64,000 nucleotides of DNA from Phaeobacter sp. J2-8 (GTDB lineage Bacteria > Pseudomonadota > Alphaproteobacteria > Rhodobacterales > Rhodobacteraceae), in contig NZ_JALIEC010000001.1 in the NCBI RefSeq assembly GCF_022867865.1, positions 62,001 to 126,000 of the forward strand, written 5' to 3'. The notes under the pieces were generated by a model. The model was not told where the DNA came from and did no database searches. It worked only from the letters and a program-made list of their open reading frames with translations. Position 1 is the stretch's first letter. Each line of letters begins with the position of its first letter. Below are positions 19,933-29,258 of this stretch, in pieces. Both the position numbers and the translations under genes were made by a program.

Positions 19933-20826
19933 TCACGATCCGGCGAGCAATCGACAAATGTCATCAAGTTGCTCCAGCGAACTATAGTTCAGTACGAGCT
20001 TGCCGCCTTCGGTCCCTGCTTTGTGCTCTACACTCACTCGAAGCCCCAGATGCGCAGATAGATCGCCCTCAAGTGCGCGCGTGTCGGCGTCTTTTCCGCC
20101 GCCTGATGATGCAGCTCCACCGAACTCACTTTTCGAGGGGGCCTCTGGCTTGGGCGATTTGACAGCTTTTTCCGTATCACGGACAGAAAGGCCCTGTGAT
20201 ACGATCCGACGCGCCATGCCAATCGGATCTTCGCAGGGAACAAGCGCCCGGGCGTGTCCGGCCGAAAGATCCCCGGCGCGCAACATGTCAAGCACGTCAC
20301 CGGGCAGATTCAAAAGGCGAAGTAGGTTGGCAATGTGGCTGCGGCTTTTGCCGAGCGCACTGGCCAATTTTTCTTGGGTATGACCAAACCTATCCATCAA
20401 TTGGCGATAGCCCATCGCCTCTTCCACGGGGTTCAGATCCGCACGTTGGATGTTTTCAATGATCGCAACTTCCAACACTTCTGTGTCAGTAAACTCGCGA
20501 ACAATAACCGGAACTTCATGCAGTTGCGCCATTTGGGCGGCGCGCCAGCGGCGTTCCCCCGCAACGATTTCGAACTGATCCTCGCCTTTTGGCCGCACGA
20601 TCAGCGGCTGGATGACACCCTTGGTCGCAATGGAATTCGCCAATTCCTGCAGCGCATCCGGCAAAAATTGCCGCCGTGGCTGTTCAGGATTTGGGAAGAT
20701 CTGTTCAACCGGAATGTGACGATCCGCGCGCCGAGGTGTTTCCGCGTTTTCAGTAGGTTCAACGTCCGCCATCAACGCGGAAAGACCGCGACCCAGGCCG
20801 CGGCGCTTCTCTTTTCCTGAATTCAT
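19933..20826 (-). CDS. parB: Chromosome-partitioning protein ParB
   Basis: ParB binds parS and spreads as a CTP-dependent clamp to mark the origin region for segregation. The 297-residue protein opens MNSGKEKRRGLGRGLSALM and has the ParB/Srx domain with GERRWRAAQMA (the arginine patch, normally GERRxRA), an HTH with TQEKLASALGKSRSHIANLLRLL that reads parS, and a C-terminal dimerisation domain after a charged linker. The open frame extends 48 codons upstream into the parA end, but ATG 20826 is the family start. It follows parA by 13 bases. Two perfect parS sites lie within 4 kb. Confidence 0.96.
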   Translation of the reverse strand: MNSGKEKRRGLGRGLSALMADVEPTENAETPRRADRHIPVEQIFPNPEQPRRQFLPDALQELANSIATKGVIQPLIVRPKGEDQFEIVAGERRWRAAQMAQLHEVPVIVREFTDTEVLEVAIIENIQRADLNPVEEAMGYRQLMDRFGHTQEKLASALGKSRSHIANLLRLLNLPGDVLDMLRAGDLSAGHARALVPCEDPIGMARRIVSQGLSVRDTEKAVKSPKPEAPSKSEFGGAASSGGGKDADTRALEGDLSAHLGLRVSVEHKAGTEGGKLVLNYSSLEQLDDICRLLAGS

Positions 20827-20839
20827 AGATCGCCCCCGA

Positions 20840-21649
20840 TTATGCTGCGCGTCGTGCGTTCTTGCCGACGAGTTCTTGCGCCAAAGCGCGATATGCCATC
20901 GCGCCTTTGGAACCACTATCATATTCCAACACGGGAATGGAATAGGACGGTGCTTCGCTAACCCGAACATTTCTGGGAATCAGGGTTTGGAACACCAAAT
21001 CACCAAGATTATCCCGCGCGTCCGTTTCGACCTGTTGCGAAAGATTGTTGCGGGAATCGTACATGGTCAGCACCACGCCCTCGATCCGGAGTGCGGGGTT
21101 TGCGGTTTGGCGCACTTCCCGAATGGTCAACATCAATTGCGAGAGCCCCTCCAAGGCAAAAAATTCGCTTTGAAGTGGAACAAGAATGGAATGTGCAGCC
21201 ACCATGGCGTTCACTGTCAAAAGGTTCAGCGAAGGTGGGCAATCTATCAAGACGAAGTCGAATTTGAATTGATCAATGGCCGTTTGCCGCAAGGAATCAT
21301 GCAACAGAAAACTGCGTTTTTCGTTTGAGATCAGTTCGATATCTGCCGATGAGAGGTCCACAGTTGCCGGTATGATCGCGAGGTTTTTGACAGCCGTGGT
21401 CTTGATTGCCTCTGCAAGATCGACATCTTCCAGCAACAATTCATAGGTTGTAAGGTCCCGATCCTTCGGCACCACCCCCATTCCGGTAGATGCGTTGCCC
21501 TGAGGGTCGAGATCGACAATCAGAACATTGAACCCCTGCTCGGCCAAAGCCGCGCCGAGGTTGATTGTGGTCGTGGTTTTACCAACTCCACCTTTTTGAT
21601 TAGCGACAGCGATGATCTTTGGACCAGCGGGCCGGATCGGATCAGACAC
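20840..21649 (-). CDS. parA: Chromosome-partitioning ATPase ParA
   Basis: ParA is the ATPase that moves ParB-parS complexes along the nucleoid. The 269-residue protein shows the deviant Walker A KGGVGKTTTTINLG (about 19-32), Walker A' VDLDPQGNASTGMG and Walker B DFVLIDCPPSLNLLT. There is no N-terminal HTH, as expected for a chromosomal ParA (type Ib/Soj-like). The start overlaps the rsmG stop by eight bases, and parB follows, so rsmG-parA-parB are translationally packed. Confidence 0.96.
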   Translation of the reverse strand: MSDPIRPAGPKIIAVANQKGGVGKTTTTINLGAALAEQGFNVLIVDLDPQGNASTGMGVVPKDRDLTTYELLLEDVDLAEAIKTTAVKNLAIIPATVDLSSADIELISNEKRSFLLHDSLRQTAIDQFKFDFVLIDCPPSLNLLTVNAMVAAHSILVPLQSEFFALEGLSQLMLTIREVRQTANPALRIEGVVLTMYDSRNNLSQQVETDARDNLGDLVFQTLIPRNVRVSEAPSYSIPVLEYDSGSKGAMAYRALAQELVGKNARRAA

Positions 21650-22246
21650 GGGAAATCTCTCCTATTCGAAGAATGACGGCGCCTTCTTGGGTACGACTTT
21701 TAATTATCTCGTGCTGAAATGAAAACATGCTCTCTGCCTCTTTCAGCTCTTTTTTCCAGGTCACGCCCTTTGGAAAGAGCGCGAATCCATCGGGGTTGAG
21801 GTGTAGACTGGCGAAATCAAGCAACTTGGCCAGCGGCGCAAGTGCTCGGGCGGAAATTACGTCTGCGTTCTGGGGCGTAATCGCCTCTATTCTCTCGGCA
21901 ATAACCTCTGCCTTACATCCGGTTTCGCGAAGGACAGTTCGCAGGAAGGTCGATTTACGTAAATCGGACTCGACCATTGTGACCGTTAGATCTGGATTAG
22001 ACAACGCAATCACCAATCCAGGCAGGCCACCGCCCGAACCAAGATCAACCCATTTTTCACCCGTAGCTCCAGCTGCCTCAACAACCTGGATTAAATTGCA
22101 ATATGACGCTCCCAGACTTGATCCATCGTTGACTTGGACACAAGGTTTATGCGCGGTGACCACTTGCGAAGCAATGCCACGAATATTTCCAATCGATCAA
22201 ATGTTTCACGTGAAACATTGAGAGACTCAGGTGTTGGGTTAATCAT
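21642..22246 (-). CDS. rsmG: 16S rRNA (guanine527-N7)-methyltransferase, frameshifted in this sequence
   Basis: RsmG (GidB) methylates G527 of 16S rRNA. Frame one starts [19 protein letters not shown] at 22246 and ends in a stop at 22091 after VWERHIA. Frame two continues [21 protein letters not shown] and contains the SAM-binding GSGGGLPGL motif. One missing base near 22099 (GCA-GAT-TTA expected) restores the family's RHIxD segment and a protein of about 201 residues. The start codon overlaps the mnmG stop (ATGA). A perfect parS palindrome lies in its first 50 bases, read as NVSRETFD. Confidence 0.9.
22200..22219. other. parS site within rsmG
   Basis: A 20-base perfect palindrome, AATGTTTCACGTGAAACATT, contains the 16-base parS core TGTTTCACGTGAAACA (22202-22217), identical to the alphaproteobacterial ParB target. 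It lies inside the 5' end of rsmG, about 1.4 kb from parB and 4.8 kb from the predicted origin. Confidence 0.9.
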
Positions 22247-24114
22247 GCACTGCGCCGCTGTGAAAGTTTTCGCAACCACGAAAGGATCAATGTCAGCGCC
22301 GCCGGCGTCATACCCTCTACCCGAGACGCTTGAAGGATATTCTCTGGCCGGGCTGTGTTCAGCTTTGACTTCAATTCGTTCGACAGCCCCTGCACCAGGT
22401 CATAGGAAAAATCCGCCGGGATTGTCAGTTTCTCGTCACGTTTGAGCGCCTCAACATCACGGTTCTGCCGATCCACATAGTTTGAGTAGAGAGCATCGCG
22501 AGCCAACTGATCAACAATTTCCGGATCGAGATCGTTCAATCCGGGAACCAATGGGCCAAGTTCAGCAACGGTCACGTTGGGAAAGGATAGAAGTTGATAG
22601 GCGCTGCGGCGAACACCGTCATTGGCAACAACAATTCCAACACCCGCAACATCGCGCGGCGTGAAGGTATTGGACTGTAGCATATCCAGTCCGGTCTCGA
22701 GTTTTTCTGCCTTTTCACTATACACCGCTTTCCGCGCGTCACCCACGCAACCTATTGAGATGCCACGCGGCGTCAGTCGCTGATCTGCATTGTCAGCTCT
22801 GAGAGAAAGACGGAACTCAGCCCGAGAGGTGAACATCCGATAGGGCTCGGACACGCCTCTGCTGATCAGGTCATCGACCATCACACCAATGTAACTTTCC
22901 GAACGGCTAAACAGAACGGGATCTTTTTTCAGAGCATGCGTCGCCGCGTTCAATCCGGCAACCAGACCCTGGGCCGCAGCTTCTTCATAGCCCGTGGTGC
23001 CATTGATTTGACCAGCCAAAAAGAAGCCGCTCAACCCCTTTAGTGCAAGTTGCGAGTTCAGCGCGCGTGGGTCGACGTAATCATATTCGATTGCATACCC
23101 GGGTTGAAGAATTTCCACATTCTCCAGCCCACGGATTGACCGGACATAGTCGTGTTGAACTTCTTCTGGAAGGCTAGTGGAAATCCCATTTGGATAGACC
23201 GCGTTGGTGTTAAGTCCCTCAGGTTCCAGAAAAATTTGGTGACTGGCTTTGTCGGCAAAGCGTACGACCTTATCCTCAATCGACGGACAATACCGCGGGC
23301 CGACGCCATCAATATGACCACCGTACATCGCTGAGCGATCAAGAATTCTTGCGAATAATCTCGTGGGTGGCTTCATTCGTATGGGTAATCCCACAGGGAA
23401 GCTGTGCCAATGTCGGCCCGGTGGACAGAAAGGAAAACAACACAGGGTTCTATCGCCCGGCTGATTTTCCAATAGATCCCAATTGATGGTCTCGGAATTC
23501 AATCTCGGCGGTGTACCTGTTTTCAAGCGGCCGATCGGCAGGTCCATTGCGTACAAACGATCCGCCAGCGCGTTCGAAGCATTATCGCCCATTCGTCCGC
23601 CGGAATAAGACACATCCCCGATATGGATCAATCCGTGCAAAAACGTGCCGGTGGTCAAAACCACGGCAGTCGCACTCAGCTCAGATCCATCCGAGAGAAC
23701 GACGCCATTGACGGTCGTTCCAGTCATGCGCAGATCGGCAACCTCACCCTCGACAATCGTAAGACCGGGAAGAGACTGCATTTCCTTCAACATCTCTTGA
23801 CGATAAACCGCACGATCTACCTGCGCTCTGGGGCCTTGAACAGCGGGGCCTTTACGCCGATTGAGCAATCGAAACTGAATACCGGCACGGTCGGCAACGC
23901 GGCCGATGACGCCGTCCAGCGCATCAACTTCGCGAACCAAATGGCCTTTACCCAACCCGCCAACAGCGGGATTACAGGAAAGAACCCCTATCCCGTCGAT
24001 TTTCAGCGTAACAAGAGCGGTCTTGGCCCCCATCCGCGCCGAAGCATGCGCGGCATCACAACCAGCATGTCCACCACCCACCACGATGACGTCAAAATGT
24101 TTCACGTGAAACAC
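22243..24114 (-). CDS. mnmG: tRNA uridine-5-carboxymethylaminomethyl modification enzyme MnmG (GidA)
   Basis: With MnmE, this FAD protein makes cmnm5U at the wobble position of several tRNAs. The 623-residue frame starts [18 protein letters not shown] with the FAD-binding GxGxxG, then [25 protein letters not shown] and the C-terminal [11 protein letters not shown]...IPADFSY block. The start codon is GTG (24112-24114), overlapping a parS site. Between about 23346 and 23449 the reading frame is shifted: two compensating indels replace the conserved segment [20 protein letters not shown] by unrelated residues. That is probably a sequence error. The gene overlaps rsmG by four bases and is two bases from mnmE. 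Confidence 0.95.
24098..24113. other. parS site overlapping the mnmG start codon
   Basis: TGTTTCACGTGAAACA is a perfect match to the ParB-binding consensus. It covers the mnmG translation start, encoding the N-terminal residues FHVKH, and is about 2.9 kb from the predicted origin. The two perfect sites are 1.9 kb apart. Confidence 0.9.
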
Positions 24115-24116
24115 TC

Positions 24117-25402
24117 CTATTTTCCGACACAGAACCGAGAGAATATTTCATCAAGCAGGTCCTCGACGTCGACCCGCCCGAGCAACCCCTCTAACGCACG
24201 AATCGCGATGCGTAACTCTTCTGCAGCTATATCATATCCATCCGGTCCTTTTTGAACCCAATCTTTCGCAATCTTAAGTCCCGCCAGCGCGCGTTCCATT
24301 TCGTCACGGTGCCGCATATGCGTCGCCAAACCCGCATTTGCACTTCGATCCGTCAACACATCCGTTATGCGAGACACAAGATGGTCGATTCCTACACCAG
24401 ATTTCGCGGAAACCGACAATCCGTCTACTTGATGAAGATCGGCCTTCGCAGTCACCACAAGATCACCCGGCAAGACTTCTATATCCGGGGTATCTCCTGG
24501 AAGCAAAAGTATCATGCGCAGATCTGCCGCCAGCGCCCTTTCGCGCGCCCGCGCAACGCCCATTGCCTCAATCTGATCTTCGGTCTCACGCAGACCCGCA
24601 GTATCAAGCAAGGTCACCGGAAGGCCATTCAAATCCATGCGAACTTCAATCACATCCCGCGTTGTGCCAGCAATTTCCGATGTGATCGCCGCTTCACGAC
24701 CCGCCAGGGCATTGAGCAGCGTCGATTTTCCGACGTTGGGTTTTCCAACAATTGCGACTTCGAATCCGGATCGAATCCGTTCTGATACTGCAACCCCCGC
24801 AACCTGCCGTGCAATATCCTCTTCAACACCATCCAACAGCGACGCGACCTCTGGCGTGACATCAACCGGCACTTCTTCATCGGCAAAATCAATGACCGCC
24901 TCTAACAGCGCCGCGGCCCGGACCAAATCATTGCGCCATTTCGCAACCAATCGCCCAAGATCACCGGACAGCACGCGCAACGCCTGACGTCTCTGCGCCT
25001 CGGTCTCGGCATCAATCAAATCTACCAAGCCTTCGGTCTGGGCCAGATCCATACATTCATTGTCAAATGCACGGCGGGTAAATTCGCGGCTTGCGCCAAC
25101 CGAAGACCGGACATTGCCGTCAGCTCTGCCAGAATCTTGCGCACCACCGCAACAGAGCCATGAACTTGCAGCTCAACACTCTCTTCCCCAGTAAAGCTCG
25201 CGCCGTTGGAGAAACACAAAACCAGCGCCTGATCAATGCGGCGCCCTGCCCGATCGGTCAGGATCCGCAGGCCAGCGCGACGCGGCTCTGGCAGATCCCC
25301 GCAAAGCAATCGGCCCGCGGCAAATGCCTGCGGGCCGGAAATCCGAATGACCGACACGCCGGCCTTTCCCTGGGCCGATGCCAGGGCAAATATGGTGTCC
25401 AT
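24117..25402 (-). CDS. mnmE: tRNA modification GTPase MnmE, frameshifted in this sequence
   Basis: MnmE (TrmE) is the GTPase partner of MnmG. Two frames join to about 428 residues. The first starts [23 protein letters not shown] and ends GLRLAQA; the second continues with the expected [10 protein letters not shown], then [14 protein letters not shown], and the G domain with GKPNVGKST (G1), the [10 protein letters not shown] switch and the C-terminal catalytic cysteine in FCVGK. One missing C at about 25087 (+ strand) explains the break; GGCGAATTT restores the conserved GEFTRRAF. It lies between rho (13 bases) and mnmG (2 bases). Confidence 0.93.
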
Positions 25403-25415
25403 TGCCGCCCCCGGC

Positions 25416-26687
25416 TCAGGTGTTCATCGAATCGAAGAATTCCGAATTCGTTTTGGTCTGCTTCAATTTCGACAGCAGGAATTCCACCGCATCTGTTGTC
25501 CCCATCGGGTTCAGGATGCGCCGCAACACAAATGTCTTTTGCAGATCCAGCTTTTCGATCAACAGATCTTCTTTCCGCGTTCCGGATTTCAGAATATCGA
25601 TCGCCGGGAACACGCGTTTGTCTGCAACCTTGCGATCCAAGACAATCTCACAGTTGCCGGTCCCTTTGAATTCCTCAAAGATCACCTTATCCATCCGGCT
25701 GCCGGTGTCGATCAGTGCAGTTGAGATAATGGTAAGCGAACCACCCTCTTCGATGTTACGCGCCGCACCAAAAAACCGTTTCGGACGCTGCAGGGCGTTG
25801 GCGTCGACACCACCGGTCAGAACCTTGCCGGAGGACGGCACCACCGTGTTGAACGCCCGGCCGAGCCGCGTGATGGAATCGAGCAGGATCACCACGTCGC
25901 GTTTATGTTCAACCAGACGTTTGGCTTTCTCGATCACCATCTCCGACACTGCAACGTGACGCGCCGCAGGTTCATCAAAGGTCGACGAAATGACCTCGCC
26001 TTTGACCGACCGCTGCATGTCCGTCACTTCTTCGGGACGTTCATCAATCAGCAAAACGATCAGATAGCATTCCGGGTGATTGGATTCGATCGAATGCGCA
26101 ATATTCTGGAGCAACACGGTTTTACCGGTCCGCGGCGGCGCGACGATCAAGGCCCGCTGGCCCTTGCCAATCGGCGCAACCAGGTCGATCACCCGTGCCG
26201 AGCGGTCCTTGATGGTCGGATCTTCGATTTCCATCTTGAACCGTTCATCGGGGTAAAGCGGCGTCAGGTTATCAAAAGCAATCTTGTGCTTGGCGCGTTC
26301 AGGATCCTGGAAATTGATCGCTGTCACATTGATCAAGGCAAAATAGCGTTCGCTGTCGTCCGGCGCGCTGATTTCCCCTTCAATCGTATCCCCGGTGCGC
26401 AAGGAGAACTTGCGGATCATCGTCGGCGATACATAGATGTCATCAGGACCCGGAAGGTAATTCGCTTCGGGGGATCTCAGAAATCCAAACCCGTCCTGCA
26501 ACACCTCCAGAACACCATCACCAGAGACTTTCCATCCCTCATCCGCGCGTTCACGCAGGATTTGGAACATGATCTCACCCTTGCGCATGGTCGAGGCATT
26601 CTCGATCTCCAGCTCCTCTGCCATGGAAAGGAGGTCCTTGGGGCTCTTGGCCTTCAGGTCAGCAAGGTTCAGGTGTTCTTCTGTCAT
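25416..26687 (-). CDS. rho: Transcription termination factor Rho
   Basis: Rho is the hexameric RNA helicase that ends transcripts at C-rich sites. The 423-residue protein starts [20 protein letters not shown], has the cold-shock RNA-binding domain ([21 protein letters not shown], in two pieces), Walker [12 protein letters not shown] at about residue 178, and the R-loop region [12 protein letters not shown]. Length is typical. I start at ATG 26687; the frame is open to 26750 without similarity. Its start faces the predicted oriC. Confidence 0.97.
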
Positions 26688-27242
26688 GAAATATCCGCGC
26701 CTGCGCCGCTTCTTGGCGTTCTGGCAAGTTCTGAATGGGAAATGCGCCAACCGGACGGTAGCGTAGGCCTTAGGTAAAGAGACTGGCGACCAAAGTCAAT
26801 CTTTGCCGTTACCGATTTTCTTCGGCGGCCTGTCGTTCGTGTGGGTTCTTATTAAAATAAAGAAAAGAAAAGAAAGGATGATGAAGGTTAGTGTCGCGGT
26901 TTCTTGTGGATTATCTTGTGATCCCTAGACTTATCAACACTGTGCGAAACCTGACAGGTGCTTGGGGGAAAGATTTGGACCTCGGCAATCAGTCTTTGGA
27001 AATTTCAATTGTTTTCAGCCCGTTGACCAGGGATTTGGCCTGTTCCGGCCTGTGTGTATCTCCGGGGGTGAAATCAGGATGGATGATATCCCCCCTGCTG
27101 CGGGTTTATGCTTTTCCCGTTGTTAAAACTTTTGTGACAAGGCCACGAGATACGCGGTCTGTGGATGTATCCGGTCTCGACCTTTAAGTTTCGCTTCGGT
27201 ATTCCTTAATTCGTTCCGCCGCTTATCCACGGATTTATCCAC
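26688..27242. other. Predicted chromosomal replication origin (oriC), non-coding gap between rho and maf
   Basis: This 555-base gap between divergent rho and maf is the longest stretch without a gene outside the decayed island. It holds an AT-rich, purine-biased tract (26847-26876, TTCTTATTAAAATAAAG then AAAAGAAAAG), fit for unwinding. DnaA boxes, some degenerate, lie at 26905-26913 (TGTGGATTA), 26931-26939 (TTATCAACA), 26941-26949 (TGTGCGAAA, weak), 27160-27168 (TGTGGATGT, weak), 27223-27231 (TTATCCACG) and 27235-27243 (TTATCCACA, perfect). Genes on both sides are transcribed away, and parAB and parS are close. Roseobacter genomes commonly place the origin at this junction. An open frame of 98 codons at 26891-27187 is probably chance. 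Confidence 0.8.
27223..27231 (+). other. DnaA box (TTATCCACG)
   Basis: One mismatch from TTATCCACA. It is in the same orientation as the perfect box three bases downstream, with 12 bases from start to start, so they lie about one helical turn apart. Confidence 0.7.
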
Positions 27243-27243
27243 A
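27235..27243 (+). other. Perfect DnaA box overlapping the maf start
   Basis: TTATCCACA matches the DnaA consensus at all nine positions. Its last A is the first base of the maf ATG (27243-27245). DnaA bound here would cover the maf ribosome binding region. Confidence 0.85.
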
Positions 27244-27842
27244 TGAAAAAACCGCTTGTTTTGGCATCTGCCTCCGAAGTTCGCGCAGATTTGCTGCGGC
27301 GGGCACATGTGCAGGTTGAAACGATGCCATCACGGATTGATGAAGAATTGGTAAAGGCCGGGATGTTGGCCGAAGATGCCAGCCCACGGGATATCGCCGA
27401 TCTGCTGGCAGAGATGAAAGCAACCAAGGCCGCTGGTAAACGGCCCGATGCGCTTGTGCTTGGTTGTGATCAGGTGCTGGACCTGAACGGCAGCCTGCTG
27501 TCGAAACCAAGTTCGCCACAGGATGCGGTCCGGAAATTGCATCTAATGCGGGGTCAACGGCACAAGCTTCTGTCTGCCTGCGTCGCGGTGGAAGACGGCA
27601 AACCGGTCTGGCGACATGTCGGGGTTGTGACCCTGCAGATGCGCGACCTGTCGGATACTTATGTGGACGACTATGTCGACCGCAACTGGGACAGCATCCA
27701 ATCCAGCGTTGGCGCCTATAAATTGGAAGAAGAAGGCAGCCGCTTGTTTACATCAATCAGCGGAGATTACTTCTCTGTACTTGGCCTTCCGCTTCTGCCC
27801 CTGTTGAATTGGCTCGCGATTCGAGGAGACATTGCAACATGA
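27243..27842 (+). CDS. Maf family nucleoside triphosphate pyrophosphatase
   Basis: Maf proteins hydrolyse modified or canonical pyrimidine or methylated guanosine triphosphates to monophosphates. The 199-residue product starts MKKPLVLASASEVRADLL, the family's SASxxR opening, then VLGCDQVLDLNGSLLSKP with the catalytic aspartate, and SVGAYKLEEEGSRLF near the end. This divergent subgroup is the one found beside aroE and coaE in Rhodobacterales. There is no good Shine-Dalgarno sequence before the ATG; a perfect DnaA box ends at its first base. The stop overlaps the aroE start (ATGA). Confidence 0.92.
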   Translation: MKKPLVLASASEVRADLLRRAHVQVETMPSRIDEELVKAGMLAEDASPRDIADLLAEMKATKAAGKRPDALVLGCDQVLDLNGSLLSKPSSPQDAVRKLHLMRGQRHKLLSACVAVEDGKPVWRHVGVVTLQMRDLSDTYVDDYVDRNWDSIQSSVGAYKLEEEGSRLFTSISGDYFSVLGLPLLPLLNWLAIRGDIAT

Positions 27843-28668
27843 TTGAAAATGTGCCCCTGGCCGGGGTGATCGGACATCCGATCACACAATCAAAATCACC
27901 GGTGCTGCATGGCCATTGGCTGCGGCGGTATGGCATTCGCGGGCATTATATCCCGATGGATGTCGCATCGGCGAACCTGGACTCTGTGTTGCGGGCATTG
28001 CCAAAGATGGGGTTTGTCGGGGTCAACATCACCATCCCGCACAAGATCAAGGTGCTGGAGATCGCCGATCAGATCACAGATCGCGCCACAATTATCGGTG
28101 CGGCCAATACGCTGATCTTTCGGCGTGATGGCAAGATCATGGCCGACAACACCGACGGATACGGGTTTATCGAAAACCTTCGCCAACATGCGCCGCAATG
28201 GGCGGCGACAGATGGGCCCGCGGTGGTGTTTGGCGCGGCGGTGCCAGTCGCGCGGTGGTGTCGTCATTGATTGATGCCGGCGTGCCCAGGATACTTTTGT
28301 CCAATCGGACAAAGATCAAGGCAGAGCAACTGCAACATGATTTTGGCAAGCGAATTCAAGTGGTTGAATGGGTTCAGGTTGGCAATTACCTCGAAGAGGC
28401 TGCGCTGGTGGTCAATACCACGGCCTTGGGTATGACCGGGCAGCCAGACATGCGCGTGCCCTTGGATGGGCTGCGCCCGGGCACCTTGGTCACGGATCTG
28501 GTCTATAACCCGCTGCGCACCCATCTTCTGGAAGAAGCCGCGCAGCGCGGCTGTCACACCGTTGATGGTTTGGGAATGCTCTTGCATCAGGCGGTGCCGG
28601 GATTCGAACGCTGGTTTGGGCATCGCCCCGACGTTGATGACGCCTTGCGGGCGGCTGTCCTGTCATGA
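27839..28668 (+). CDS. aroE: Shikimate dehydrogenase, frameshifted in this sequence
   Basis: AroE reduces 3-dehydroshikimate to shikimate with NADPH in aromatic amino acid synthesis. Frame one starts MIENVPLAGVIGHPITQSKSPVLH, with the substrate-binding SKSPxxH, VNITIPHK with the catalytic lysine, and NTDGYGF. Frame two carries the nucleotide-binding GGASRAVV and the C-terminal GLGMLLHQAVPGFERWFG. One missing G at about 28237 restores the expected FGAGGASRAVV and a protein of about 276 residues. The stop overlaps the coaE start (ATGA). Confidence 0.94.
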
Positions 28669-29258
28669 CCTTCCGGCTCGGCCTGACCGGGTCAATTGGC
28701 ATGGGAAAATCCACCACGGCCGCCATGTTTGCGGAACTGGGTTGTCGTGTTTGGGATGCGGATGCGGCGGTTCATCAATTGTATGATGTCGGCGGTGCCG
28801 CGGTGGCACCAATCGCCAAGGTCTGGCCGGCGGCAATCCAGGATGGCGCTGTCTCTCGGGCAAGATTGAAGGACATCATCGCCGCCGATCCAGATGCCTT
28901 GCATCAGCTGGAAGAAATAGTGCATCCGCTGGTTGCCCAGGACCGGGGCAATTTTGCCCGCGATCCAGATGCGGACATTCTGGTGTTTGATATTCCATTG
29001 TTGTTCGAAACCGGCGGCGAGGCGATGATGGACGCCGTGGCCTGCGTGTTTGTGACCCCAGAGGTCCAGCGCAGCCGCGTCATGGCGCGTGGGACAATGA
29101 CCGCCGCTCAGTTTGAGCAAATTCTCGCGAAGCAGATGCCGATTGACGAAAAATTGGCGCGGGCCACTTTTCAGATCGAGACCGATACGCTTGAACATGC
29201 GCGGACACAGGTCAAAGATGTGGTGCAACAGATAAGATCGGGATTTGCAGATGCGTGA
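28665..29258 (+). CDS. coaE: Dephospho-CoA kinase
   Basis: CoaE phosphorylates dephospho-CoA in the last step of CoA synthesis. The 197-residue protein begins MTFRLGLTGSIGMGKSTTA with the P-loop GSIGMGKST (about 9-17), then VWDADAAVHQLY, a conserved VHPLV (substrate-binding) and DIPLLFETGGE. Length is standard. It overlaps aroE by four and dnaQ by eight bases. Confidence 0.96.
   Translation: MTFRLGLTGSIGMGKSTTAAMFAELGCRVWDADAAVHQLYDVGGAAVAPIAKVWPAAIQDGAVSRARLKDIIAADPDALHQLEEIVHPLVAQDRGNFARDPDADILVFDIPLLFETGGEAMMDAVACVFVTPEVQRSRVMARGTMTAAQFEQILAKQMPIDEKLARATFQIETDTLEHARTQVKDVVQQIRSGFADA

What the first reader, a model, noticed from the sequence alone, without database searches (positions are those of the whole stretch)
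26688..27243. Predicted chromosomal replication origin (oriC) between rho and maf
The 555-base gap between divergent genes holds an AT-rich tract (26847-26876) and a set of DnaA-box-like 9-mers, one perfect (TTATCCACA, 27235-27243) and several with one mismatch. The flanking par/rsmG/mnmG/mnmE/rho and maf/aroE/coaE/dnaQ order is the one seen at origin regions of Roseobacter-type chromosomes, and perfect parS sites are within 5 kb.
Basis: partly seen in the sequence, partly recalled or inferred. Interest (0 to 1): 0.75.

Follow-up and report, generated by a model that had tools for sequence, protein, structure and literature searches.

The report
Chromosome replication origin next to maf
The gap between the rho and maf genes is almost certainly where this alphaproteobacterium starts copying its chromosome; it is an ordinary member of an origin type already reported for the Rhodobacteraceae.

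Summary
The finding is right. The 555-bp gap between rho (-) and maf (+) holds an AT-rich tract and four DnaA boxes with at most one mismatch, one perfect: the densest box cluster in 624 kb sampled of this genome. Cumulative GC skew over C1:1-160000 is lowest 66 bp from the gap. To the right, 23 of 23 pieces out to 1.12 Mb are positive; to the left, 3 of 4 are negative. In two relatives the sampled skew changes sign at the same locus. The genome's only parS sites at up to one mismatch lie 2.6 and 4.5 kb away. Across 40 rho-maf gaps, boxes and AT tracts cluster at fixed distances from maf: 96 boxes against 4.3 in shuffles. An oriC next to maf is already reported as conserved in Rhodobacteraceae (PMC4793288, passages), so this is a new member of a known kind. 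Extra details: in 16 of 40 loci a box ends on the A of a maf ATG, and a hemJ-family gene usually lying between origin and rho is missing here. Initiation itself was not measured.

The parts
26688..27243 (.). oriC region (rho-maf intergenic gap plus first base of the maf start codon)
26847..26876 (.). AT-rich tract, proposed DNA unwinding element
   Evidence: at this distance from maf mean AT is 0.73 over 40 loci (bin -380 to -361)
26877..26891 (.). short motif GATGATG...TAG between AT tract and first DnaA box, well conserved in the family alignment; possible DnaA-trio-like element that does not meet the published pattern
26905..26913 (-). DnaA box TAATCCACA (1 mismatch), unchanged in the 4 same-genus loci
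26931..26939 (+). DnaA box TTATCAACA (1 mismatch), kept in 3 of the 4 same-genus loci
27003..27025 (.). site of a second AT-rich stretch in the family (mean AT 0.75); weak here (own AT 0.60); the family consensus resembles an IHF site, own copy has 2 mismatches
27223..27231 (+). DnaA box TTATCCACG (1 mismatch)
27235..27243 (+). perfect DnaA box TTATCCACA; its last base is the A of the maf ATG
25416..26687 (-). rho, transcription termination factor (flank)
27243..27842 (+). maf, Maf-like nucleotide pyrophosphatase family (flank)
24098..24113 (.). parS site, perfect palindrome
22202..22217 (.). parS site, perfect palindrome
20840..21649 (-). parA
19933..20970 (-). parB

Best explanation
This is the chromosomal replication origin, oriC. 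Inferred mechanism: DnaA binds the boxes at 26905, 26931, 27223 and 27235, probably with weaker sites between them; the oligomer melts the AT tract at 26847-26876; helicase is loaded and two forks leave in opposite directions (maf and dnaA side to the right, rho and par side to the left). ParB on the two parS sites then helps to move the new origins apart. Shown here: boxes, AT tract, skew switch, parS sites, family conservation. Inferred from established knowledge of oriC: DnaA binding, melting, helicase loading, initiation.
For: Box cluster unmatched in 624 kb sampled. Cumulative skew minimum 66 bp from the gap over 160 kb contiguous. Skew positive in 23 of 23 pieces to the right, negative in 3 of 4 to the left. 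Sampled skew of G016 and G006 changes sign at the same locus. In 40 rho-maf gaps there are 96 boxes with at most 1 mismatch in the last 400 bp against 4.3 +/- 2.0 in 100 shuffle sets (max 10), and 39 of 40 loci have at least one (boxes that need the A of the start codon are not counted there). Boxes and AT tracts cluster at fixed places. Only two parS sites in the genome at up to one mismatch, both within 4.5 kb; parAB beside it. The dnaA gene is about 56 kb away and has no box with at most 1 mismatch in the 3.5 kb around its DnaA domain. Published: oriC next to maf conserved in Rhodobacteraceae (PMC4793288, passages).
Against: Only four boxes with at most one mismatch, one of them perfect; own sequence departs from the family consensus at the inner box groups. 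No perfect IHF site and no TTAA-N7-TTAA CtrA site. The outermost 20 kb of C1 has slightly positive skew, +0.0044. The left side could be followed for only 88 kb and the assembly is in 17 contigs. In the relatives 1 of 9 and 2 of 10 stretches on the positive side and 0 of 11 and 1 of 10 on the negative side have the wrong sign. No experiment.
Confidence: 0.96

Rival explanations
1. The box cluster is only a DnaA-controlled promoter region of maf or rho, and the true origin is elsewhere, for example beside dnaA.
For: Small DnaA-box groups also sit between ftsA and ftsZ and between a DUF484 gene and priA in this genome, so they are not unique to origins. A sigma-70-like promoter match toward rho overlaps the left boxes (1 found, 0.4 expected).
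Against: Skew changes sign here and stays positive past dnaA out to 1.12 Mb; no box with at most one mismatch in the 3.5 kb around the DnaA domain; relatives change sign here too; parS sites are only here.
Confidence: 0.02
2. Right locus, but the working origin is wider than the gap and reaches into rho or maf coding sequence.
For: The last box shares a base with the maf start codon, and the base-level skew minimum falls 66 bp inside rho.
Against: The conserved box groups and AT tracts lie within about 400 bp upstream of maf; skew cannot resolve tens of bases.
Confidence: 0.02

Closest known systems
Rhodobacteraceae oriC next to maf (Ketogulonicigenium vulgare and DoriC, PMC4793288; Ori-Finder set of 101 strains, PMC6699656; passages of both seen)
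   Same: Predicted origin directly beside maf (PMC4793288); DnaA boxes, GC disparity minimum and nearby parAB used as criteria (PMC6699656).
   Different: Nothing of principle. Here rho adjoins the origin directly, because the hemJ-family gene that lies between them in many relatives is missing.
Caulobacter crescentus Cori (as described in PMC1914354, passages seen)
   Same: About 40-bp AT-rich region, several DnaA boxes, alphaproteobacterial chromosome.
   Different: Cori lies between hemE and a DUF299 gene, with five CtrA sites and an IHF site. Here the flanks are rho and maf; no TTAA-N7-TTAA site and only imperfect IHF-like matches.
DnaA-trio basal unwinding system (PMC8287927, passages seen)
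   Same: A conserved TAG (3'-GAT-5' read backwards) lies 13 bp from the box at 26905, then GATGATG and an A-rich tract.
   Different: At least three consecutive xAx trios within 16 bp of a box were not found on the strand I took as expected.

Membership tests
bacterial oriC (DnaA-dependent) | cluster of DnaA boxes | tested here: met
   4 boxes in 556 bp, top of 624 kb sampled; 96 against 4.3 expected over 40 family loci
bacterial oriC (DnaA-dependent) | AT-rich unwinding element | tested here: met
   26847-26876; AT peak at the same distance from maf in the family. Melting itself not tested
bacterial oriC (DnaA-dependent) | GC-skew switch at the site | tested here: met
   for this genome (contig C1 only, 1.16 of 4.80 Mb, sampled); for two relatives, sampled
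bacterial oriC (DnaA-dependent) | DnaA-dependent initiation in the cell | not testable with these tools
   needs marker frequency or plasmid replication
Rhodobacteraceae-type oriC next to maf | origin directly upstream of maf, parAB nearby | tested here: met
   rho found upstream of and divergent from maf in 41 of 44 loci examined
Caulobacter-type CtrA-controlled origin | CtrA sites TTAA-N7-TTAA in the origin | tested here: not met
   0 in the whole window; 3 of 40 family loci have one, 0.3 sites expected
Caulobacter-type origin | IHF site WATCAANNNNTTR | tested here: inconclusive
   none perfect in own gap; best own match has 1 mismatch and overlaps a DnaA box; 5 of 40 family loci have a perfect one, 1.0 expected
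DnaA-trio basal unwinding system | three or more xAx trios within 16 bp of a DnaA box | tested here: inconclusive
   own sequence: none on the strand taken as expected, one three-trio match on the other reading, not tested against chance (strand convention partly recalled); conserved TAG/GATGATG motif present

The most novel reading that the evidence does not exclude
The right edge of this origin is built into the start of maf. In 16 of 40 family loci a DnaA box (at most one mismatch) ends on the A of an in-frame maf ATG, and 29 of 40 have a box in the last 30 bp. DnaA loading at the origin could therefore shut off maf and the genes behind it (aroE, coaE, dnaQ), tying initiation directly to a septation-linked protein and the polymerase proofreading subunit.
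Probability: 0.2. Interest if true: 0.45.

Novelty: new member of a known kind. Interest (0 to 1): 0.2.

Why it matters
It gives a well-supported origin for this genome and a family-wide map of origin parts (two AT tracts, box groups at fixed distances from maf) that can guide minimal-origin plasmids. It does not change the understanding of replication origins.

Tried and rejected
Origin beside dnaA: rejected, because no box with at most one mismatch lies in the 3.5 kb fetched around the DnaA domain and skew does not change sign there.

Other places with double boxes (3 besides the gap): L005 boxes lie inside coding sequence (metalloenzyme and adenosine deaminase genes); L006 is the ftsA-ftsZ gap; L007, with three boxes in 96 bp, is the gap between a DUF484 gene and priA and was not part of the 624-kb sample. 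None is near parS; they look like possible DnaA-regulated promoters.

RNA element: no Rfam match at gathering score in 25000-29000. CcrM sites: no GANTC in the gap, but over 40 loci GANTC is 61 against 72.0 +/- 8.6 in shuffles, not unusual. DnaA-trio: inconclusive. 12-bp box pairs as a family rule: only 5 of 40 loci have one at up to two mismatches per box, so not claimed. Shine-Dalgarno loss at maf: 12 of 40 loci have an SD-like tetramer, own does not; no conclusion.

Correction made on re-checking: appended ATG to each gap instead of the real bases, with the maf start extrapolated from BLAST. One search repeated it with real bases: the codon is ATG in 31 of 40 loci; a box with at most one mismatch ends on its first base in 17, of which 15 are ATG; one more (L022) ends on an ATG one codon on, giving 16. 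Distances in 9 loci may thus be off by a few bases.

Full report
Check of the observation. The gap 26688-27242 lies between rho (25416-26687, -) and maf (27243-27842, +). It holds the AT-rich tract at 26847-26876 and four DnaA boxes with at most one mismatch to TTATCCACA: 26905-26913 (-), 26931-26939 (+), 27223-27231 (+) and the perfect one at 27235-27243 (+). In the window as a whole such boxes are only mildly frequent (13 against 8.1 expected, 5 of 100 shuffles reach 13). In 624 kb sampled of this genome there are 68, and no other 555-bp stretch has four; the next best separate cluster has three and lies in coding sequence (L076/L005). The order parB-parA-rsmG-mnmG-mnmE-rho-gap-maf-aroE-coaE-dnaQ is confirmed. 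The only two parS sites in the genome with at most one mismatch are at 22202-22217 and 24098-24113.

GC skew. The window is C1:62001-126000 of a 4.80-Mb genome in 17 contigs, and C1 is 1.163 Mb. Over the contiguous C1:1-160000 the cumulative minimum is at C1:88622, window 26622, 66 bp inside rho. To the right, 23 of 23 measured pieces up to 1.12 Mb are positive (0.009 to 0.090); to the left, 3 of 4 are negative, the outermost being +0.0044. The single stretches of C2, C3, C10 and C11 have unknown orientation and say nothing. In relative G016 (main contig 4.33 Mb) and G006 (one contig, 3.56 Mb) I split the 20 sampled stretches at maf and at the point half the contig away. G016: negative in 11 of 11 on one side, positive in 8 of 9 on the other. 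G006: positive in 8 of 10, negative in 9 of 10. In both, the nearest stretches on the two sides of maf have opposite signs.

Family comparison. A Maf-family match was found in 57 of 61 genomes, paralogues included, and 14 loci with record titles were fetched. Of 44 loci examined, 41 have rho upstream and divergent; one duplicate removed leaves 40, own included. In the last 400 bp before maf there are 96 boxes with at most one mismatch against 4.3 +/- 2.0 in dinucleotide shuffles; 39 of 40 loci have at least one; perfect boxes are 9 against 0.1 (which leaves out boxes that need the A of the start codon). The boxes group at about -340 (-), -310 (+), -200 (-), -160 (+), -20 (+) and -8 (+), and mean AT peaks at -380 and -240 (0.73 and 0.75). 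The alignment consensus carries TGTGGATTA, a TTATCC...TTaTCCACA pair, CTGTGGATAA, TTaTCCACA and TTaTCCACAGaGTTATCCACATG. Own sequence keeps the outer groups; the inner ones are degenerate. The four same-genus loci keep TGTGGATTA and ATCCACATG unchanged. The loci are related, so the counts are not independent.

Mechanism. The anatomy fits a DnaA-dependent origin: DnaA on the box groups, melting of the AT tract beside the leftmost box, then two forks. The conserved short motif between tract and first box recalls DnaA-trios (PMC8287927, passages), but the published pattern was not found on the strand I took as expected, so that step is open. No CtrA site and no perfect IHF site were found in own sequence. 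[quoted passage not shown] lack of a consensus site here does not exclude such an influence.

Known or new. PMC4793288 (passages) places the predicted K. vulgare origin next to maf and states that DoriC shows this to be conserved in Rhodobacteraceae. PMC6699656 (passages) pinpointed oriC in 101 of 109 strains from Ori-Finder (skew, boxes), local GC and parAB. So this is a new member of a known kind. The Caulobacter origin has other flanks (hemE and a DUF299 gene) and CtrA sites (PMC1914354, passages).

Two details beyond the prediction. First, with real bases a box with at most one mismatch ends on the A of an in-frame maf ATG in 16 of 40 loci, and 29 of 40 have a box in the last 30 bp. This might let DnaA repress maf; untested, and shared ancestry alone could keep the register. 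Second, 28 of 40 gaps are about 1 kb and 12 about 0.5 kb. A hemJ-family gene (UPF0093) lies between origin and rho in L020, and in 16 of the 17 long-gap or unclassified same-family genomes a high-scoring UPF0093 gene (135-205 bits) lies within 2.5 kb upstream of maf on the same contig (positions; G011 is on another contig). The eight short-gap genomes (G000-G003, G005, G012, G014, G023; G014's 493-bp gap) have none there but low-scoring homologues elsewhere (best 70-85 bits). This suggests, but does not prove, that a different hemJ replaced the origin-linked one. The papers listed by one search with oriC, hemJ, Rhodobacteraceae, HemE and Maf (listing only) did not show it in their titles.

Limits. 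The assembly is fragmented and two neighbouring genes show frame breaks, so single-base errors in the boxes cannot be excluded.

Noticed in passing
G000:C10:688246-688266 (L006 1501-1521): Two perfect DnaA boxes 12 bp apart in the ftsA-ftsZ gap, about 180 bp before ftsZ; no match at one mismatch in the three same-genus genomes. The Caulobacter ftsZ promoter is reported to have two DnaA boxes (PMC3193534, passage).
   Followed up: partly
G000:C11, L007 1426-1521: Three DnaA boxes (one perfect) in 96 bp between a DUF484 gene and priA; possible DnaA-regulated promoter or DnaA-binding site.
   Followed up: partly
rho-maf gap across the family; own UPF0093 homologue at G000:C2:93209-93619: The origin-linked hemJ-family gene is absent in the short-gap genomes (8 of 8 covered), which carry a divergent homologue elsewhere: possible gene replacement.
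   Followed up: partly
window 28237 and 25079-25085: aroE and mnmE each change reading frame once, while L020 has an unbroken aroE and an unbroken mnmE part. Assembly errors or recent breaks.
   Followed up: partly
window 24098-24114: One parS site lies at the listed start of mnmG (22243-24114, -; start chosen mechanically), so the same bases may serve ParB binding and the protein start.
   Followed up: no
window 21642-22163: rsmG matches its NCBIfam profile only from position 34 of 183 and scores 89.7 against a cut-off of 99.5: start may be mis-set or the gene broken.
   Followed up: no
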